A stretch of 21,943 nucleotides of DNA from a virus: positions 1-21,943 of IMG/VR virus record IMGVR_UViG_3300036761_000567; one strand, 5' to 3'. The stretch's first letter is position 1, and each line of letters begins with the position of its first letter. Below are positions 2,538 through 21,943 of this stretch, piece by piece. Under the pieces are notes generated by a model. It saw only the letters and a program-made list of their open reading frames with translations, ran no database searches and had not been told where the DNA came from. The position numbers and the translations under genes were made by a program.

Positions 2538-3238
2538 CTCGGTATCATCCCCGAAGAAGCAAATCCGCCTTGATCACCAGACTTGAGGGTCAATTCTCGG
2601 TTTGCCGTGGTGTTCTGCAATTGGGCGATATACCGCTGCAATGCCTGTTGAGCATAGTCCACACCCGCGGTCGTGCCCGTATTACTAAGACTGGTGCGCG
2701 CCCCTACGTCCGTTCCGTACCGAGAAGTTTCAGCCCCCACATTCACCCCATACATCCCGGCCGCGGTCTGACCAAGACCTGTCAGGATATCGGCCCGTTT
2801 GCTGGCCAGGCCGAGGTTGGTCTGCGCCCGGTTGGCCTCATCGTAGGCGATCCCGGCGGCGGGCATATTCAGGGTGTTGGCCATACCGGAGTTGACCGAC
2901 TGCATGGCAATATCAGAGAGAGTCCGCCGCTTGCCCTGCTGATACATCTTCTCCGTCTCGCCGGTGAGTCCGGCCAGGGCCTCGCGGAACAGGCCGGAGA
3001 CATCACCGTAACCTGGTCCCGCACCGCCTGCGGGTGCGGCCGAGGTGGCGGGCGAAGAAGTGGCAGTGGGTGCCTTAGCAGCAGACCGTCGTTGTAACTC
3101 TGCCTGAGCGAATCGCTTATCCCACGGTCCATTCATAGAGTTCTGGAGTTCGACATCCGACATCGTTGACCAGTCTTTTGTCGTCATGCCACCTTGTGTC
3201 GTCGTGCCAAGTCCACTACCTAAAGTACCCCACGCCAT
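2534..3238 (-). CDS. Helical structural or ejection protein (unknown)
   Basis: This is a 234-residue protein. I chose the ATG at 3238, which shares its A with the TAA of the upstream gene (TAATG) and follows a GAGGG site; a longer frame to 3295 exists but overlaps the neighbour. The N-terminus is Gly/Thr-rich, then residues about 50-75 form a low-complexity Ala/Pro/Ser/Thr linker. The rest is Ala/Gln-rich and likely helical (LTGETEKMYQQGKRRTLSDI, then YAQQALQRYIAQLQNTTANR). Lying between the beta-propeller gene and the tail fibre, it could be an internal virion protein ejected with the DNA. I do not recognise the family, so the function is inferred from position and predicted helix only. Confidence 0.6.
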   Translation of the reverse strand: MAWGTLGSGLGTTTQGGMTTKDWSTMSDVELQNSMNGPWDKRFAQAELQRRSAAKAPTATSSPATSAAPAGGAGPGYGDVSGLFREALAGLTGETEKMYQQGKRRTLSDIAMQSVNSGMANTLNMPAAGIAYDEANRAQTNLGLASKRADILTGLGQTAAGMYGVNVGAETSRYGTDVGARTSLSNTGTTAGVDYAQQALQRYIAQLQNTTANRELTLKSGDQGGFASSGMIPR

Positions 3239-4764
3239 TATCGTACCCTCTTTCCCGGCGCGCCGCCGTCCAGAATGATCTTCTCCATCCCCCATGTCTC
3301 GCCGACTGTACTGTTACCCACTTTGATTCCCGCGAAGGCCCCGCGAATCCCGCGCCTACGCTTGGCTCCGCGCGCCCGGCCCGGACCTGCAAAGGTCATG
3401 GCCAGTTTCGGATTCGTGCCCGTGTTGAGTTTCTCGATCAGGGTCTCGGCCACATCCTCAGACCAGAGTTGTACCGTGGCGTTGTTGGAGTCTGTCAGAC
3501 CCCCACTCGCCCCACCGGCCAAAATCATATCGACCGCCTCAAGAGAACCATCCCGGCCGTCCTCGGCCAGCGGAATCGGACCAAAACACACATAACTGTC
3601 GATAGCCGTACTGTCATCGTTGGTCGCGGCATCACTATGCGCCCGCACATACCCGTCCGCGCAGCCGAGAAGTAGGGCCTTGTAGTCGGGATCGTTGGCG
3701 TCGTACTGGAAAATCGAGTAGACGCCGTGCGTACTGGCGTGGGTATCGAGAAACATCCCGCCGGTCTGCAAATCAAGCCAATAGTTCGTACTGGTGCCGT
3801 CCGCCAGGAGGGTGATGCAAATCTTGATCCCACTACGCACAGCATCGTGGCCCATCAAGATTCGGTGTGTAGAGGGGTCGGCCCCGGTATCGACGATCAG
3901 GTTCGGTAGGTTGGCCGCGGTGATGTTCTCCACTTGAGCCGAGCCTTTGGCGAGTCTATAGATGCCGCCGGTGCCCCAGAAGTAGAGGTTGCCGTTGCCG
4001 TCGAAACACCACGAGGTATGTCCGAAGATGCCCGTGCCGTTGATATCGACCATCTGCCCGCCATAGGCAGGGTTGTCGATCATTATGTGCATGGAGTTGG
4101 CGCATCCGATGATGAGTTGCCCATCCCGCGCCGGGATTAATGCCCGCACCACGTCGCCGATCTGACCGGAACCGCCGGACCCGATGACCGTAGCCCGGTC
4201 TGCCGTCGTCCGGTAGATATTCCAGTCCCACGGGTTGCCCGCTGCCGAGGTCGGGGCCTGGTGGGGGTAGTTGGGGTTGCCCGATAGGATACACCGACCG
4301 CCGGACAAGCAACCGACATACGCCTTGGCGGGCATGGTCCCATAGTTCGTCGTATCACCACCGTAGACAGTCCAGTTGTACCAGTGCGGCGGCGCGGTCT
4401 CACCCCCGGAGGTCGTGAAGGAAATCGCGTTGCCATCGTCATCAGTACCAGTCACCGCCCCCGCGCTAAAGAGGGCCGCGGTAATACGATAACCGTAGAT
4501 TGTACACGCCGCGCTGGGGGTGTTGCTGGTGATGTAGTCCACCACCATCTGTCCCCCGGTTCCCGCCGTCAGGATATTCCCGCGATCCGGTGGATTGGTG
4601 CCGACATTAGTCGTGATGATCTTCGTATTCTGGAAATCGGCGACCTTGAGTTTGTCCCCGTTCACGATGAAGACCTTACCGTATGCCTCGAATACCATCA
4701 ACTGATCGGCCGTGTTGATGTCATCCCGTGCGGCGGTGAGTTCTATGAATGTTCCGGCTGGCAT
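3238..4764 (-). CDS. Beta-propeller tail (nozzle-like) protein, C-terminal part of a split family
   Basis: 508 residues from the ATG at 4764, which shares a base with the upstream TAA (TAATG), with GAGGA about 11 bases before. A frame open to 5112 exists but overlaps the 94-aa gene and adds an unlikely Cys/Arg-rich leader. The sequence is a run of short beta-strand repeats with Gly-Asn/Asp turns: MVFEAYGKVFIVNGDKLKV near the start, DGQLIIGCANSMHIMID and DGNGNLYFWGTGGIYRLAKG in the middle, and KALLLGCADGYVRAHSD later. This pattern suits a beta-propeller such as the nozzle of short-tailed phages (T7 gp12-like). The protein begins abruptly inside what I recall as the middle of a longer virion protein; the expected N-terminal half seems to lie in upstream cistrons. 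The structural role is likely, the exact position inferred. Confidence 0.65.
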   Translation of the reverse strand: MPAGTFIELTAARDDINTADQLMVFEAYGKVFIVNGDKLKVADFQNTKIITTNVGTNPPDRGNILTAGTGGQMVVDYITSNTPSAACTIYGYRITAALFSAGAVTGTDDDGNAISFTTSGGETAPPHWYNWTVYGGDTTNYGTMPAKAYVGCLSGGRCILSGNPNYPHQAPTSAAGNPWDWNIYRTTADRATVIGSGGSGQIGDVVRALIPARDGQLIIGCANSMHIMIDNPAYGGQMVDINGTGIFGHTSWCFDGNGNLYFWGTGGIYRLAKGSAQVENITAANLPNLIVDTGADPSTHRILMGHDAVRSGIKICITLLADGTSTNYWLDLQTGGMFLDTHASTHGVYSIFQYDANDPDYKALLLGCADGYVRAHSDAATNDDSTAIDSYVCFGPIPLAEDGRDGSLEAVDMILAGGASGGLTDSNNATVQLWSEDVAETLIEKLNTGTNPKLAMTFAGPGRARGAKRRRGIRGAFAGIKVGNSTVGETWGMEKIILDGGAPGKRVR

Positions 4765-5048
4765 TATATATCCTCGAACCAGACTTGGTTGTTTCCGATT
4801 GCCAACATCCGCTTCACAGTGGCAAGTGCGACGGGCGGCGTCTCGGCGTATGATGCCACCAGCACGGCCGATCCGCCACTTGTTCCACCGCCCGTGGCAA
4901 CGAGTTCCACAATATCGGCAGTTGTGAGTGTCGCCGATCCACCGCTCGTGCCGCCACCCGTGGCAACGAGTCCTACGAACGCCGCTGCATTTTGGGCAGC
5001 ACCAATATATAAGCCGGAGTATTGGGATGCCCCTACATTCCAACTCAT
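4764..5048 (-). CDS. Small tail linker protein with duplicated Gly-rich motif
   Basis: This 94-residue protein overlaps the spike gene by ATGA at its start and the beta-propeller gene by TAATG at its end. It contains LVATGGGTSGGSA twice, 22 residues apart (about residues 27-39 and 49-61), encoded by a 66-base direct repeat. The C-terminus, about residues 75-94 (TVKRMLAIGNNQVWFEDI), matches the end of the 186-aa protein at 6944-7504. Read straight on, WFEDI leads into PAGTFIELTAARDD of the next gene, as if one ancestral protein had been cut here. It probably forms a small beta-rich tail adaptor. The family is not recognised; tight coupling on both sides supports it being translated. Confidence 0.65.
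   Translation of the reverse strand: MSWNVGASQYSGLYIGAAQNAAAFVGLVATGGGTSGGSATLTTADIVELVATGGGTSGGSAVLVASYAETPPVALATVKRMLAIGNNQVWFEDI
4867..4971. repeat. 66-base-period direct repeat inside a tail gene
   Basis: Two 39-base copies (4867-4905 and 4933-4971) share the core cccgtggcaacgagt and differ mostly at third codon positions. They encode the two LVATGGGTSGGSA motifs. The synonymous differences mean the duplication is old and the peptide is conserved by selection rather than newly copied. Confidence 0.85.
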
Positions 5049-6562
5049 ACAGTGACCCCAGAATAGGTGTGGGCATCCAAGGCCGCATCAATGCAGGTAC
5101 TCGCCGCCCCAAGAGTGAAGTCTGAGCCCTTCACCACGCCGAAAGTACACGCACTGATGTTGTTTGACCCATTGGTGGGATCGGTGGCCAGCGTCACCTG
5201 ACCCGGAATACTGGCGATCGAAGTAATAGCATAGACGGCCAACTTGATCCCCGTGCCCGTGCCCGCAAAGATCGCCAGATAGTCTGAGGTTGTTACGTCA
5301 GCGAATGGATTACTGGCCGAAGTAAACACCAAACTGGTGGCGGTCGATGCTCCATCTGTACCCTTACCTATTGTTCCGGTCAGTGCGGGGTCAGTGGCGA
5401 TGTCCGTTGCTCCGGCGGTGACGTTGGTTCTGGGTGTGGTGTTGCCATAGAAGCAGTTGTATTCCCACAAATTCATCGGCTGAGCCGTTGCCCAGTTGGC
5501 CCCCACGAAACAATCGGCTACCACATTATTTATGCACGTCACCGGGGTACTCGTGCCACCTGCGATTCCACTTTTACAGTTTCGTATCGTGCAGTTGTAA
5601 ATTTGAGATTGGGCTACAGTTAAAATGCCCTGTCCTGAAGCCGCCGAAGAGCAGGTGTCAATCACACAGTTAATGGCCCGCCCGCCAGTAGAGGTGAATA
5701 CTATCCCCTGAGCACTATCGTGTGCATAGCACCCTATTAGCGTAGTGGAGTATGTCTGAAACGCCGCACCGGCGGGGGCGGACGCCTCGCACCCTACTAA
5801 CACGCAATTCCCCGTGGTGAGAACGTAAAAGGCAATTGCCGCAGAGGCAGAACTATTTACCACTTTACAGTTAAAAAACGAGGAGCTTCCGGTTTGGTTA
5901 TCCACCACCGAGGCAGCCGTGCCGGTAAACTGTAGATTAGACACTCTAATGAACGAATTAACTCCGAAGGTAAATGCTCCACAAGCGATAGTCGGTCGAT
6001 ACGCCCCAGTACAGGAGTCTCCGCGAGTAAGTTTATAGCCAGTCATAAGAATTGGAAGGGGGCCCGTCCCCGCCGTCCCCGCCGCTACATTACCCGCTAT
6101 GGTAAATGTCGTACCCGGACTTGTATTGCCTCCGTTGTACCAGATAGTATTACCGGCTTTCACCGCGGCGTGAAACGCTGTGTCCTGTGCTGCAATCCCG
6201 TAAGCCAAGGCACCGCCGACATTCACCACACCGTCCTTGGTCGTATTGGCAGACGCCCCCAAGGAACGGTCCACCGTGATGTTATAGGAGTCCACGCGGG
6301 TCCTGATCTCGTACCACCCAACGGTGAAGTTCGTCCCAGATACCACTTTGATGAGATTACCCACCATCGCTGTCGTGAATCCGCCCGTATCTGAAGTAAG
6401 GGTGGTAGAACCCGCCCCATGATAGCAATCCGTGGGGGCCAATACCGGAGTCGGTGCAGCCAGCGTGTAGTCCGTACTTCCGCCGGTAGTGACGTACCCA
6501 CCACCGTTGTTCATCGAACCGCCGGACGCGAATTCCCAGACCGTAGAAGCTGAAAGAGCCAT
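5045..6562 (-). CDS. Parallel beta-helix tail spike
   Basis: 505 residues. The N-terminal ~110 residues contain FTTAMVGNLIKVVSGTNFTV and ITVDRSLG, a motif set seen near the N-terminus of many phage spike proteins. Residues about 190-350 are a right-handed parallel beta-helix: rungs of about 20 residues such as RVSNLQFTGTA, FFNCKVVNSSA, LVGCEASAPAG, LIGCYAHDSAQGIVF, INCVIDTCSSAASG and IYNCTIRNCKSGI. Ladders of Cys and Asn stack inside the coil. No catalytic residues could be assigned, so polysaccharide cleavage is possible but not shown. The start at 6562 lies 4 bases after the upstream TAA with no clear ribosome site, suggesting coupling. The stop overlaps the next start by ATGA. Confidence 0.8.
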   Translation of the reverse strand: MALSASTVWEFASGGSMNNGGGYVTTGGSTDYTLAAPTPVLAPTDCYHGAGSTTLTSDTGGFTTAMVGNLIKVVSGTNFTVGWYEIRTRVDSYNITVDRSLGASANTTKDGVVNVGGALAYGIAAQDTAFHAAVKAGNTIWYNGGNTSPGTTFTIAGNVAAGTAGTGPLPILMTGYKLTRGDSCTGAYRPTIACGAFTFGVNSFIRVSNLQFTGTAASVVDNQTGSSSFFNCKVVNSSASAAIAFYVLTTGNCVLVGCEASAPAGAAFQTYSTTLIGCYAHDSAQGIVFTSTGGRAINCVIDTCSSAASGQGILTVAQSQIYNCTIRNCKSGIAGGTSTPVTCINNVVADCFVGANWATAQPMNLWEYNCFYGNTTPRTNVTAGATDIATDPALTGTIGKGTDGASTATSLVFTSASNPFADVTTSDYLAIFAGTGTGIKLAVYAITSIASIPGQVTLATDPTNGSNNISACTFGVVKGSDFTLGAASTCIDAALDAHTYSGVTV

Positions 6563-6566
6563 AGCA

Positions 6567-6941
6567 TTAATCCAGTGTGACAGTCAATGTACTCGCTAAG
6601 AACCGCGGAACCTTTCCCGACGTAACTGCCACGCCGCCGGTAAGGGCTAAGGCTACGCGGGGCACACCGCCAGACACGGCGGCGAAAATACACACGTATG
6701 TCACCGTGCCCCACGAGCCAGTGGCTTCCGGGAAGGTTATGGCCGCGCCGTTGGTCTTTGCTCCTGCCGCTGCTGGGTTCCACGTAGCCGCCGTAACGGC
6801 CACGCGGGCGTATCCGTTGCCCACCGGCTCTGCCAAGGTAGCGCCAGCGTCACCGGGGTCGGCCGTAGATAGGCCAACCCAATTGTTCATTTCCAACAGT
6901 GCGTCAAGGACAGCAACCTCTTCTGTGTCACTAAGACTCAT
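6567..6941 (-). CDS. Small tail-fibre-like structural protein
   Basis: 124 residues matching from memory a common phage family with the signature WVGLSTADPGDAGATLAEP, GNGYARVAV, NGAAITFPEATGSWGTV and then IFAAVSGG. Members are usually 110-150 residues and annotated as tail fibre or minor tail proteins, so this one appears full length. The start at 6941 comes 2 bases after the upstream TGA. The gene sits between a tail linker gene and a beta-helix spike, which fits a part of the tail appendage. The family match is good; its exact place in the virion is unknown. Confidence 0.75.
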   Translation of the reverse strand: MSLSDTEEVAVLDALLEMNNWVGLSTADPGDAGATLAEPVGNGYARVAVTAATWNPAAAGAKTNGAAITFPEATGSWGTVTYVCIFAAVSGGVPRVALALTGGVAVTSGKVPRFLASTLTVTLD

Positions 6942-6943
6942 GG

Positions 6944-7504
6944 TCAGACATCCTCATAAAAAAATCGGTGTCGCGCCGTCGCAATCAATCGTTTCGTCGT
7001 CGCCCGGTCGGCGGGTGGGGTAAACACATAGGTTGGCGTACCGCTGATCTCGAACATGAAATCCTGGGTCGCATAGGGCGTCCAAGTTCCCCCGGTATCC
7101 GTACTATGGAGTCGCTGTCCATATACGTAGGTAGCCGCTGTGCTATCTATCCGCCAGTTGATGTTATTAGACCCATTATCCCCGCCAGACAAAACGACGG
7201 CATACATACCAGCCGATATCGTCCCGAACGGGGCGAATGTCAACGTTACCCACTCCCCGCCCGTGTCCGTGGTTATGGTGTTTCCATTAAATCCAATTGC
7301 TCCCAGAGATGCGCTGGGCAATCCGCCCGCAGTAGTATATAGTGTAAACGCGCACGTCCCCGGAGACCCGACGCGGAATACTTTGAACCGGGCATCTCCC
7401 AGAGTAGCGGCCTCTATGGTGAAAGTCTGCGCGAGCCTTACCGTGCCCGCATCTTGTGCGACATACGAATCGTCGTCAGTAGTGTAGGCCGCCAGAATAC
7501 TCAT
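6944..7504 (-). CDS. Beta-sandwich tail protein with shared C-terminal module
   Basis: 186 residues. Residues about 1-160 look like a jelly-roll or carbohydrate-binding-like beta sandwich: TVRLAQTFTI, CAFTLYTTAGGLPSASL, GEWVTLTFAPFG, AGMYAVVLSGGD and NNINWRIDSTA, a layout like proteins with a sensitive outer beta sandwich. The last 20 residues (TKRLIATARHRFFYEDV) resemble the end of the 94-aa protein at 4764-5048. The start overlaps the upstream stop by ATGA. It may add a surface-binding domain to the tail. The domain call is by pattern only; the shared tail is seen directly. Confidence 0.65.
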   Translation of the reverse strand: MSILAAYTTDDDSYVAQDAGTVRLAQTFTIEAATLGDARFKVFRVGSPGTCAFTLYTTAGGLPSASLGAIGFNGNTITTDTGGEWVTLTFAPFGTISAGMYAVVLSGGDNGSNNINWRIDSTAATYVYGQRLHSTDTGGTWTPYATQDFMFEISGTPTYVFTPPADRATTKRLIATARHRFFYEDV

Positions 7505-7731
7505 GGACTCTCCACCGCGCTACAAGAGCACATAGCCACGACCGGCTGTGTTGACGCTCCGATCAACGTGCCCGCCCCCCACTTGAGGAGGCCCGGCCGT
7601 TGTCCGCCTCGGAGTCGGCCTTGCCAAAACGGGCGCACATTCTGCAAGCGGGGTGACGTGTTCTCCGGCGGATTACCAGGAAGACCGCCCTTGTGAAGCC
7701 CAGAAAACGGAAATACCAGCATTTGCGACAT
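7501..7731 (-). CDS. N-terminal piece of a tail beta-propeller protein
   Basis: 76 residues from the ATG at 7731, with GGAG 11 bases upstream overlapping the stop of the adaptor gene. The segment GNPPENTSPRLQNVRPF followed by GRLRGGQRPGL resembles, from memory, the opening of long phage virion proteins (NPP..TS..L.NVRPF..-R.RGGQRPGL) that normally continue for several hundred residues. Here the frame stops after SAVESP, at an ATGA overlap with the next gene. Either the phage makes this N-terminal segment as a separate chain, or the gene has decayed. The neighbouring downstream genes carry what look like the missing later parts. Confidence 0.65.
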   Translation of the reverse strand: MSQMLVFPFSGLHKGGLPGNPPENTSPRLQNVRPFWQGRLRGGQRPGLLKWGAGTLIGASTQPVVAMCSCSAVESP

Positions 7732-7741
7732 CGGGGTTCTC

Positions 7742-9004
7742 CTACGTGTTGTATACCACTGCGTCTCGCTGCACGTACACCGTTCGCGGCCCGGTTCCGG
7801 GAAGCATCACACCCAGTTTCTTCGGGGCCGAACGGCCGTCGATGGCGTGAGCGGTGGGGAGGTCTACGCTGAGGAACTTATCCACGTACCCGCGTTTCAC
7901 GTCAGAAAATTCCAATTCGGTCTGCGCGAGGCAGGCCGAGACAACCGCAAAGTCGAATTGCAACCCGCATGGATGCGTAGCCGCCTCATCCACGTAGTAG
8001 ATGCTCCCGACGCCGGGATTTGTACCGTCCGCCACACCATTCTGGTAGAGCCAGTCGGCCACGGTGAAGACGCCGGTAGAACCGACATAATCGGTACAGA
8101 CGGCATAACTGGTCTTACCCGTACCGCTGATGATCTTGATGGTCTTGCCGTTGAAGTAGTCGTTGGCATACAGGCCAATTAGGGCCGTATCAGTCAGAGT
8201 CGTCGCCCCACCACCCGTGGCCGTCCCCACAACCAACGTAAGTTTGTCGAAGCTCACTTTGTAGGGGAACACGACCGTATGTTCGGCGGTCGGGGCCGGG
8301 TCCACAATCAGTTCCCATCGGCGTTGCGTACTGTTGGGCAGGACCGCCGCCAGGAACGGAGAATCGCCCGATTGTACGTAAATCTCGCGGGCATGGCGAA
8401 TCGCCCCCTCACTGGTCCATTCGAGGCCACAAGCGTTCTCCCCGGCCGCAAAGGTGATGTCGCCGGTCACTTCCCCCTGGAAGTCCTGGCTGAGGAGGTA
8501 ACGTGCCGGGTCCGATTCGATGACTTGGGTTGATCGGCAGATTCGATATTCGGACGTTGTAGTGGGAGTGGACCCCCCAGATAGTGCAGCGAATAGAAAC
8601 TGTCCGGTCGCGCCGACGTAATCTGTGATGGTTGCATACTCATCCTCCCCGGTGCCCGCCGTGATGCGCAGGACATACCCATTGAAAAAGTCGTTCGCAT
8701 AATCACCTGCAATATCGCTGTCAGTCAAACTTGTCGCTGCTCCGGCCGAGGCCGTGCCCGTGTAGGCGCGAACCAGATTGACCGTCATCTGCCGGTTCCT
8801 CCACCGCCAACCCTCCGGTGGACCCTTTGCTATAAGGTCCCGGACAGCAGAATTAAGCACCGTAAGGCACCGATCAAGGTCGTGTCCGTCTATCGGAATC
8901 ATGGCCTTTTCTTGTCCGGTGGTCCCAAAATAGGCAATTTCGGCTGCTCGTGCAATCTCAAGAACAAGATCATATACCGACAAACTGGAGGTAGGTTCAC
9001 TCAT
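7742..9004 (-). CDS. Head-tail adaptor / tail tubular protein (gp11-like candidate)
   Basis: 420 residues. The N-terminal helical segment (VYDLVLEIARAAEIAYFG, then DLDRCLTVLNSAVRDLIAKG and WRWRNRQ) and C-terminal helical segment (LQFDFAVVSACLAQTELEFS) frame a beta-rich middle, as in gp11-like adaptors of short-tailed phages. Residues about 79-139 and 257-317 are two copies of one inserted domain: TSLTDSDIAG-YANDFFNGYVLRITAGTG with DYVGATGQF, and TTLTDTALIG-YANDYFNGKTIKIISGTG with DYVGSTGVF. Its position just before the beta-propeller pieces fits the tail-tube base. The start at 9004 lies inside the end of the broken endonuclease (8-base overlap). The adaptor call rests on fold pattern and gene order. 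Confidence 0.65.
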   Translation of the reverse strand: MSEPTSSLSVYDLVLEIARAAEIAYFGTTGQEKAMIPIDGHDLDRCLTVLNSAVRDLIAKGPPEGWRWRNRQMTVNLVRAYTGTASAGAATSLTDSDIAGDYANDFFNGYVLRITAGTGEDEYATITDYVGATGQFLFAALSGGSTPTTTSEYRICRSTQVIESDPARYLLSQDFQGEVTGDITFAAGENACGLEWTSEGAIRHAREIYVQSGDSPFLAAVLPNSTQRRWELIVDPAPTAEHTVVFPYKVSFDKLTLVVGTATGGGATTLTDTALIGLYANDYFNGKTIKIISGTGKTSYAVCTDYVGSTGVFTVADWLYQNGVADGTNPGVGSIYYVDEAATHPCGLQFDFAVVSACLAQTELEFSDVKRGYVDKFLSVDLPTAHAIDGRSAPKKLGVMLPGTGPRTVYVQRDAVVYNT

Positions 9005-9466
9005 TTGCGGTCTTCCTAAGGTATTCCTTTAGTTGGTCTAACACCACCGGGTCCTCACGAACCTGCCCCAAAACGAGGTTACACCTATGACACAATAATC
9101 CCCGGACCATTCCAGTTACGTGACTATGGTCAGTGGCAATTTGATCGTAAGAAACCGATACCCCACACACTTTACAACATCCGTTTTGTTTTGTTTTGCA
9201 TACATATCTCTGCGGGCCTCTGGCGTTAACCCATACGCACGTTTCAGACGGCACTTGTGGCTTATTCGTTTGATGTAATCCTTGTGCGATTGCGCCCACT
9301 TCTTCCAACGTTGTAAACATCTTTCTTTGTTCAGTGAGCGATATGTGTTATTTTTCGCCCGCGTACAAGTCCTACACCAACTGCTCAGGCTGTCTTTATG
9401 GTGACTACATTTAGTGAACGCACTTACATCCTGTTCTAACCCACATCGCGCACATCTTTTAGTCAT
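8997..9466 (-). pseudogene. Endonuclease VII-like HNH nuclease, frameshifted
   Basis: Two frames together encode a recombination endonuclease VII-type protein. The first (from 9466) starts MTKRCARCGLEQDVSAF with a second pair WCRTC at 30-34, an N-terminal zinc ribbon, then a basic helical linker to YGLTPEARRDMYAKQN. The second supplies the catalytic part: CCKVCG, then TDHSHVTGMVRGLLCHRCN and LGQVREDP, the family's DH-H-TG-VRGLLC-CN signature with two zinc Cys pairs. The frames meet at three CAAAA units (9184-9198). Removing one unit gives a single 154-codon frame ending at 8997. As given, ribosomes would miss the nuclease core. The gene overlaps neighbours at both ends (ATGA at the start). 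A real mutation, repeat-length switching or an assembly error are all possible. Confidence 0.85.
9184..9198 (-). repeat. (CAAAA)3 slippage tract at frameshift
   Basis: Three tandem CAAAA units (TTTTG on the plus strand). With three units the endonuclease frames are out of register; with two they join exactly. Short tandem repeats of non-triplet unit length inside a coding region are classic slippage sites. Confidence 0.9.
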
Positions 9467-20211: not shown

Positions 20212-21075
20212 CTATCCCCTTTCATTCACATCTACTACTATTTCACCCGGAGGCCCTTGCGGGCCACACTCACCCGGAGGTCCTTGTGGTCCTTGCGGAC
20301 CGCGCATATCAGGTTGGATCACCCGGAACCGGCACAGGTCGAACCACGACCGCACCGCCCCGATAGTGTCGCGGAACCGGGCCACAGGCACCGAATAATT
20401 CAGTGTTTCCGCCATCCCGGCAACGAGGACACCGATAGCCTCACCGCGCATATTGAACACCGGCCCCCCGGAATTGCCGGGGAACGCCGGACTCGTGGTC
20501 TGGAACATGACGTGCCAGTCGTACTGTTTGCCCTCCGGCCAGAGTTTGGCAAGATTGCGGTTCGCGGCCGATAGGATACCGAAGGAGACGGTATTGAAGT
20601 TGTCCTGGCCGAGCGGACTTCCAAAAATAAAGAGTGCATCCCCCACGCGAAGATCATCGCCCTTTGCAAGCCGGGCATACGGCAGCGGGCCGGCGCCGGG
20701 CGGCAAGTCGAGTTTCATCAAGGTCACGTCGTTCTCGCGGTCCTCGATGACGTACTTGACCGGGTACTGTTTGCCGTCATCGAGCGTCACCGTGTAGACG
20801 CCGCACGGGTCGCCATCGGAGACGTGCCTGGCCGTAAACAGGATACCATTAGGGTCGATGAGACACCCGGAGCCCTGGCATCCCCCGCCATCGGGCGTGG
20901 TCTTACGGATGTGAACCACGGCCCCACGGACCTGTTCGACCTGGGGGGCGATGCTGAATTGCTGCACCGTGGTCTTGTAGACCGTCTTGTAGACGACCTT
21001 CTGGGGCCGCAGGAGCAACACCGGCAGGCTACCCACCAGGAAAGCGAGTATCAGGACAATACCCTTGCGAGTCAT
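20212..21075 (-). CDS. Membrane-anchored HtrA-like serine protease with collagen-like tail
   Basis: 287 residues with GGAGG before the ATG. Residues about 5-22 form a hydrophobic signal or anchor (GIVLILAFLVGSLPVLLL). The trypsin-like domain has all three catalytic residues: His84 in FTARHV, Asp116 in RENDVTLMKLD and Ser202 in FPGNSGGPVF. SPLGQ at about 153-157 is typical of HtrA/DegP proteases. No PDZ domain follows; instead residues 259-279 are seven Gly-X-Y triplets (GPQGPQGPPGECGPQGPPGE), a collagen-like stretch, with a short acidic end. The protease should act outside the cytoplasm. In a phage it could process virion or envelope proteins or block superinfection; this is inference. Confidence 0.85.
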   Translation of the reverse strand: MTRKGIVLILAFLVGSLPVLLLRPQKVVYKTVYKTTVQQFSIAPQVEQVRGAVVHIRKTTPDGGGCQGSGCLIDPNGILFTARHVSDGDPCGVYTVTLDDGKQYPVKYVIEDRENDVTLMKLDLPPGAGPLPYARLAKGDDLRVGDALFIFGSPLGQDNFNTVSFGILSAANRNLAKLWPEGKQYDWHVMFQTTSPAFPGNSGGPVFNMRGEAIGVLVAGMAETLNYSVPVARFRDTIGAVRSWFDLCRFRVIQPDMRGPQGPQGPPGECGPQGPPGEIVVDVNERG

Positions 21076-21849: not shown

Positions 21850-21850
21850 T

Positions 21851-21936
21851 CGCACGCGCACGCGCACGCGCACGCGCACGCGCACGCGCACGCGCACGCG
21901 CACGCGCACGCGCACGCGCACGCGCACGCGCACGCG
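21851..21936. repeat. Hexamer tandem repeat (CGCACG), about 14 copies
   Basis: A perfect 6-base period runs for 86 bases, then changes to CTCTGCC at the window edge. Translated it gives only Arg-Val or Ala-His/Arg repeats, so I do not call a gene. It could be a real microsatellite, a physical end of the molecule or an assembly artefact at a contig end. Confidence 0.9.
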
Positions 21937-21943
21937 CTCTGCC

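What the first reader, a model, noticed from the sequence alone, without database searches (positions are those of the whole stretch)
3238..7731. A tail beta-propeller protein appears split into overlapping cistrons with spike genes inserted
The 76-aa gene at 7501 carries only an N-terminal signature (NVRPF with RGGQRPGL). The 508-aa gene at 3238 begins as if in mid-protein (PAGTFIELTAARDD). Two genes between them end in the same module (TKRLIATARHRFFYEDV and TVKRMLAIGNNQVWFEDI), and the second joins the propeller gene through TAATG at just the point where the text would continue. The fibre and beta-helix genes lie between the two copies. Together this looks like one ancestral virion protein broken into coupled pieces, with appendage genes inserted and the linker duplicated: a modular assembly by separate chains. 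The signature recall is from memory.
Basis: partly seen in the sequence, partly recalled or inferred. Interest (0 to 1): 0.75.

Follow-up and report, generated by a model that had tools for sequence, protein, structure and literature searches.

The report
Phage tail nozzle split into pieces
In a group of uncultured short-tailed phages, the protein that forms the tip of the DNA-ejection tail is encoded in separate genes, and appendage genes placed among them end in a short copy of the tip protein's own first hairpin, which suggests (not yet shown by experiment) that appendages plug into the tail tip as interchangeable parts.

Summary
The 76-aa, 94-aa and 508-aa genes encode pieces of one podovirus tail nozzle (T7 gp12/P22 gp10/SU10 gp17 fold). 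Intact homologues exist: ten marine viral contigs (five distinct sequences) plus L088 carry the N-terminal piece, a large insert, the module and the propeller in one chain. The 'module' is not a linker. It is the first beta-hairpin of the propeller, fused in about 65 relatives. In 22 relatives, the window included, the propeller lacks it, and in 21 of them the gene just upstream ends in exactly that hairpin. Separate appendage genes end in it too: at least 79 of 134 genes between the pieces, and only 3 of 1,166 genes outside, all three themselves appendage genes. Two hairpin types exist, a cargo type and a propeller type. Separate hairpin-ending genes occur in almost all loci whose appendages are not fused to the propeller, and in 0 of 22 where they are. 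Best reading: a nozzle assembled from separate chains, with hairpin-tagged, exchangeable appendages. Gene structure and homology are well supported; docking in trans is inferred.

The parts
7501..7731 (-). N76: N-terminal piece of the nozzle (FPFSGLHKGGLPG..NVRPF..RGGQRPGL..QPVVAMC), separate 76-aa chain
   Evidence: Profile A1; homologous to the N-terminus of single-chain nozzles L088 and L154-L163; solved single-chain nozzles have about 66-73 residues before the position where the hairpin begins
6944..7504 (-). Appendage gene 1 (186 aa): beta-rich domain that in relatives is fused in front of the propeller, plus C-terminal hairpin of type A
   Evidence: Resembles the N-terminal half of single-chain cargo+propeller proteins such as L105 and L085; weak phrog_5986 shared with L085; related domain in L135 weakly hits DUF4082/lectin-like
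6947..6994 (-). Hairpin module A, KRLIATARHRFFYEDV
   Evidence: divergent copy, below the profile cut-off
6567..6941 (-). Gp80-like fibre protein (PF23140, podophage GP4 fibre I), no hairpin
   Evidence: Pfam E 3.8e-25; lies between the pieces in 18/22 loci with a hairpin-less propeller and 0/40 with a hairpin-propeller chain
5045..6562 (-). Predicted beta-helix (NosD-like) appendage protein, no hairpin
   Evidence: NosD below curated cut-off, E 4e-4
4764..5048 (-). Appendage gene 2 (94 aa): Gly/Ser-rich repeats plus C-terminal hairpin of type P
   Evidence: L002 has a similar repeat + hairpin + propeller in one 607-aa chain
4767..4814 (-). Hairpin module P, KRMLAIGNNQVWFEDI, the piece missing from the propeller chain
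   Evidence: Corresponds to the in-chain first hairpin of L001 and relatives; beta-hairpin in the AlphaFold2 model of L001
4762..4766 (-). TAATG stop/start overlap joining the 94-aa gene and the propeller gene
   Evidence: same -1 spacing in 12 of 21 such junctions
4772..4775 (-). GAGG, a possible ribosome-binding site for the propeller gene inside the hairpin's Glu-Asp codons
   Evidence: enrichment over fused copies not significant (p = 0.09)
3238..4764 (-). Nozzle propeller and C-terminal platform region (508 aa), lacking N-terminal piece and first hairpin
   Evidence: Profile A2 matched in 111 stretches; the model of the 78%-identical L001 chain matches the nozzles of Pa223, SU10, VP1, P22 and T7

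Best explanation
The three pieces are one podovirus tail-nozzle protein encoded as separate chains. SHOWN: they are homologous to successive parts of single-chain nozzles. The order in the single chain is N-terminal piece, appendage insert, first hairpin, propeller, C-terminal part. The splits fall at the two ends of the appendage insertion site, and hairpin copies are kept at the C-termini of appendage genes. INFERRED: N76 packs back into the nozzle as its N-terminal platform strands. The hairpin at the end of the 94-aa chain completes the first blade of the hairpin-less 508-aa propeller and so anchors that appendage. The type-A hairpin at the end of the 186-aa chain is a second docking tag that replaces the covalent link seen in relatives where the appendage is fused to the propeller. 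Stop/start overlaps keep the pieces translated together. The outcome is a nozzle onto which different receptor-facing domains can be swapped gene by gene.
For: Single-chain homologues. The propeller model (pLDDT 86.5) with the hairpin in place matches solved nozzles, and its residues 8-10 align with residues 66-74 of those chains, so each solved nozzle has about one N76 more at its N-terminus. In 21 of 22 hairpin-less propellers the upstream gene ends in the hairpin at the junction. The hairpin is conserved at 52% mean pairwise identity against 8-16% in the flanking 70 residues. Two hairpin classes: Gly at position 7 in 1/61 type A, 14/22 trans type P, 30/38 fused type P of hairpin-propeller chains (p = 1.6e-9 for A against trans P). 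A separate hairpin-ending gene is found in 0/22 loci with appendage and propeller fused, 38/40 of the hairpin-propeller class and 20/22 of the trans class (the window's own was missed by the cut-off). L060 and L064 carry the type-A appendage gene upstream of N76. Twelve junctions overlap by one base, but spacing ranges from -4 to +11 in all frames.
Against: No complex prediction and no virion data. The fold of the single-chain L155 came out poor (pLDDT 48.8), so the place of N76 next to the hairpin is not modelled. The docking site of hairpin A is unknown where the propeller already has its own hairpin P. N76 gave no sequence match to solved nozzles. L081 does not fit the junction rule in sequence.
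Confidence: 0.66

Rival explanations
1. The hairpins at appendage C-termini are not docking tags but traces of gene shuffling: about 45 bp of shared sequence at which appendage cassettes recombine, kept partly because the Glu-Asp codons supply a ribosome-binding site for the next gene.
For: The hairpin/propeller break flips often on the tree (at least 13 changes forced by starred branches). GAGG lies in the hairpin codons shortly before the next start.
Against: Conservation extends over the whole hairpin at protein level. The two classes A and P stay distinct within one genome, which frequent recombination between them would erase. The GAG preference in trans over fused copies is not significant. 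The tag is also kept on genes upstream of N76.
Confidence: 0.2
2. Recoding (frameshift, bypass or readthrough) joins the pieces into one long chain, so there are no separate pieces.
For: The split points lie exactly where the chain would continue, and stop and start overlap.
Against: Across 21 junctions the start lies -4, -1, 0, +1, +2, +8 or +11 bases from the stop, in all frames, with ribosome-binding-like spacers in L024 and L146. Genes without hairpins (Gp80, beta-helix) sit between the pieces. In L060/L064 the appendage gene lies before N76.
Confidence: 0.07
3. The split is the product of homing-endonuclease insertions (genes in pieces, as for Aeh1 nrdA), and the appendages are incidental.
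For: Known precedent in phages (PMC2988022). L021 carries an HNH-like ORF beside its appendage genes (by reading), and the window has an endonuclease VII-like ORF at 8997-9466.
Against: No endonuclease lies at either break in the window. The break is shared by the whole clade, and its usual occupants are appendage genes. Nothing separates N76 from the propeller gene in L060.
Confidence: 0.06
4. Chance resemblance, sequencing error or misassembly in the window.
For: The window is a single uncultured contig.
Against: The same arrangement recurs in many independent contigs and in MAG contigs such as L173.
Confidence: 0.01

Closest known systems
Podovirus tail nozzle proteins (T7 gp12, P22 gp10, SU10 gp17, Pa223, VP1)
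   Same: Same fold by Foldseek and VIA-align (Pa223 Z 20.4, SU10 19.2, VP1 19.0, P22 gp10 18.2). In T7 the 45-residue N-terminus supplies three strands of the platform (PMC6702177), and tip domains are inserted into the propeller in T7 and SU10 (PMC6702177, PMC9509320).
   Different: Those are single chains. Here the N-terminal piece, the appendage domains and often the first hairpin are separate genes. The insert lies directly before the first hairpin, not between blades 2 and 3 as in SU10.
crAss001 muzzle gp44
   Same: Nozzle-type propeller with large domains inserted into it (PMC10172136).
   Different: One chain.
Split phage genes that reassemble (Aeh1 nrdA, gene 43A/43B of phage 25)
   Same: One ancestral protein encoded in pieces that reassemble (PMC2988022).
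   Different: Those are enzymes split by an insertion. Here it is a structural protein, with appendage genes at the break and the first hairpin repeated on them.
Gp80, podophage GP4 fibre I (PF23140)
   Same: The window's 124-aa gene is a member.
   Different: In Sinorhizobium phage phiM5 and Ochrobactrum phage OH it follows tail tubular protein A. Here it sits inside the split nozzle locus.

Membership tests
Podovirus tail nozzle (T7 gp12 / P22 gp10 / SU10 gp17 type) | Beta-propeller core with C-terminal platform region, nozzle fold | tested here: met
   Model of L001 (78% identical to the window's 508 aa) aligns over residues 8-530 with Pa223, SU10, VP1 and P22 gp10 nozzles; the number of blades was not counted
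Podovirus tail nozzle (T7 gp12 / P22 gp10 / SU10 gp17 type) | N-terminal residues of the same chain form part of the platform | tested here: inconclusive
   Absent from the 508-aa chain; carried by the 76-aa gene, whose size fits the 66-73 residues missing and whose homologue is N-terminal in single-chain relatives. Structure of the fused chain was poor
Podovirus tail nozzle (T7 gp12 / P22 gp10 / SU10 gp17 type) | Encoded in the structural block after portal, capsid and connector genes | tested here: met
   Terminase, SU10-type portal and major head protein matches upstream; the gene just before N76 (7742-9004) is conserved in place but matched no family, so calling it the adaptor is an inference
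Podovirus tail nozzle (T7 gp12 / P22 gp10 / SU10 gp17 type) | Hexamer at the tail tip | not testable with these tools
   No virion or complex
Homing-endonuclease genes-in-pieces | Endonuclease gene at the break | tested here: not met
   None among the genes between the pieces in the window; the endonuclease VII-like ORF lies at 8997-9466, outside
Homing-endonuclease genes-in-pieces | Pieces reassemble into a working protein | not testable with these tools
   Needs expression or a virion
PF23140 Gp80 | Match above curated cut-off | tested here: met
   89.1 bits against cut-off 27 for window 6567-6941

The most novel reading that the evidence does not exclude
A plug-in tail tip: the virus keeps the nozzle's first blade open and lets separately encoded appendages compete for, or share, docking slots through copies of the nozzle's own hairpin (types A and P), so that host-contact modules are exchanged as whole genes without touching the nozzle gene.
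Probability: 0.4. Interest if true: 0.8.

Novelty: new variant of a known kind. Interest (0 to 1): 0.64.

Why it matters
Phage appendages are usually described as attached through their own N-terminal anchors, or as domains inside one long chain. Here an essential gatekeeper protein appears to be built from several chains, and its own first hairpin has become a C-terminal tag on exchangeable appendages. That gives a natural experiment (fused, half-split and fully split forms among relatives) on how large virion proteins break up and reassemble, and it is directly testable by co-expression. It also shows that gene-by-gene annotation misses tail nozzles in this clade: the 508-aa and 76-aa products match no PHROGs or Pfam family, and neither matches any isolate phage in the held collection.

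Tried and rejected
Sequence search of solved structures with N76 (A1), propeller (A2) and fused (A6) profiles gave nothing credible. tblastn against 50,697 isolate phage records found no relative of the 508-aa gene, N76 or the fused chains (only chance-level hits in 34 and 35). AlphaFold2 of the fused L155 chain failed and was not used. Alignment A5 put the hairpins against the N-terminal piece and was replaced by A6. Programmed frameshifting was rejected because of the spread of junction spacings. A GAG codon bias in trans hairpins as proof of an embedded ribosome-binding site was not significant. Phage papers on a split nozzle: none found in the held library, which is not proof of absence.
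Full report
OBSERVATION. Minus-strand order is: 420-aa gene (7742-9004), N76 (7501-7731), 186 aa (6944-7504), Gp80-like 124 aa (6567-6941), beta-helix 505 aa (5045-6562), 94 aa (4764-5048), 508 aa (3238-4764). Neighbouring genes overlap by 4 bases, by 1 base (TAATG), or sit a few bases apart. The window is a 21.9-kb linear record of uncultured virus.

RELATIVES. Single-sequence and profile scans of viral contigs gave L001-L169. In 146 loci both N76 and the propeller are found, with 99 distinct propellers. Three MAG contigs also carry the family. No isolate phage in the held collection does.

INTACT HOMOLOGUES. Ten contigs (L154-L163; five distinct sequences) encode an about 1,026-aa single chain with the N76 signature at its start, an about 500-aa insert, the module (RQTVRLVVHGGIVREFDD) and the propeller; L088 has a 1,456-aa version. 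In 22 distinct loci N76 is separate, and one downstream chain of about 700-850 aa contains appendage + module + propeller. L002 has a glycine-rich repeat like that of the window's 94-aa gene, the module and the propeller in one chain (the match is weak but in register).

WHAT THE MODULE IS. In the closest relative with the module in the same chain (L001, 78% identical propeller) AlphaFold2 gives a confident model (mean pLDDT 86.5) in which the module is a beta-hairpin at the start of the propeller (strands 15-18 and 21-25). The best solved matches from phages are tail nozzles: Pa223 (Z 20.4), SU10 (19.2), VP1 (19.0), P22 gp10 (18.2), with T7 and GP4 also in the Foldseek list. In all four VIA-aligned nozzles the model begins at residue 66-74 of the solved chain, so single-chain nozzles have about 70 residues in front of the hairpin, the size of N76. 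In T7 gp12 the 45-residue N-terminus supplies three platform strands (PMC6702177), which is the role I infer for N76. An attempt to show this by folding the whole fused chain failed.

RULES OF THE LOCUS. (a) N76 ends within a few residues of the same point in all 89 split loci counted. (b) 22 propeller chains lack the hairpin, and in 21 the gene just upstream ends with it, with stop-to-start spacing of -1 (12 cases), 0 (3), -4, +1, +2 (2), +8 and +11. (c) Of 134 called genes between N76 and the propeller, 79 end in the hairpin at a conservative cut-off, against 3 of 1,166 upstream or downstream genes. Those 3 are an appendage gene in L005 that my interval rule misplaced, and the appendage genes of L060 and L064, which lie upstream of N76. 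(d) Two hairpin classes exist. The hairpins not next to the propeller (A) nearly never have Gly at position 7 (1/61); those next to it often do, whether in trans (14/22) or in hairpin-propeller chains (30/38). In chains with appendage, hairpin and propeller fused the share is lower (6/20), partly because the motif finder sometimes took them one residue out of register. (e) Separate hairpin-ending genes: 0/22 in loci where the appendage is fused to the propeller, 38/40 in loci with a hairpin-propeller chain, 20/22 in loci with the hairpin in trans. (f) A Gp80-like gene lies between the pieces in 18/22 trans loci and 0/40 hairpin-propeller loci (p = 4e-12; related sequences are counted as independent, so the p-value is too small). 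(g) The hairpin is the conserved part of these appendage genes (52% against 8-16% identity; the genes were chosen by the hairpin, which inflates this somewhat).

EVOLUTION. On a quick maximum-likelihood tree the single-chain forms are one side of a fully supported branch, and the hairpin-in-trans state is scattered (19 changes, 13 forced by starred branches, no more clustered than shuffled labels). The window (trans) and L001 (fused) are sisters. Since the solved nozzles matched here are single chains, fission at the base of the clade is the simpler reading, but the root was not tested independently.

MECHANISM. Committed reading: N76 rejoins the nozzle as platform strands; the hairpin on the 94-aa chain completes the first blade of the 508-aa propeller; the hairpin on the 186-aa chain is a second docking tag. 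Shown: homology, order, exact split points, conservation and co-occurrence. Inferred: docking in trans, stoichiometry, exposure of appendages. Frame diversity at the junctions, appendage genes upstream of N76, and hairpin-free genes lying between the pieces argue against one continuous polypeptide.

LIMITS. Loci are metagenomic, and some are near-copies. Gene calls are mechanical; the window's own two hairpins were read by eye because the first is below the cut-off and the second gene was masked by a longer ORF. No multimer prediction was available.

Noticed in passing
L003, L008, L019, L021, L044, L053, L061, L083, L092, L131, L175 (between N76 and propeller): A second recurrent split: a fibronectin-III-like domain is cut in mid-domain, one gene ending near LTWEAG and the next starting with a YNVYF-type strand (for example L175 6127-6645 / 6645-6917), while L011, L023 and L065 have it unsplit. 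Why a small domain would be cut there is unexplained.
   Followed up: partly
L060:7051-7983 and L064:7056-7967: The hairpin-ending appendage gene lies upstream of N76 instead of between the pieces, showing that its place in the operon is free.
   Followed up: yes
window 8997-9466, minus strand: An endonuclease VII-like gene (PF02945, E 1e-16 for 8997-9320) looks frameshifted into two overlapping ORFs (9116-9466 and 8997-9320).
   Followed up: partly
window 20212-21075, minus strand: Trypsin-like protease (PF13365, E 9e-27) with a signal-like N-terminus and a short collagen-like GPQGPQGPPG tail, an unusual gene for a phage.
   Followed up: no
L021, about 2587-3924: Extra ORFs, one with an HNH-like cysteine pattern, sit inside the split fibronectin-like domain, a possible homing-endonuclease insertion (by reading; Pfam did not identify 2587-3264).
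   Followed up: no
L005:7213-8001: The appendage fused to the hairpin is a Laminin_G_3/concanavalin-like lectin domain (PF13385, E 1.6e-18), which supports a surface-binding role for appendages.
   Followed up: partly
window 21850-21943: A (CA)n/(GT)n tract runs to the end of the contig, possibly where assembly stopped.
   Followed up: no
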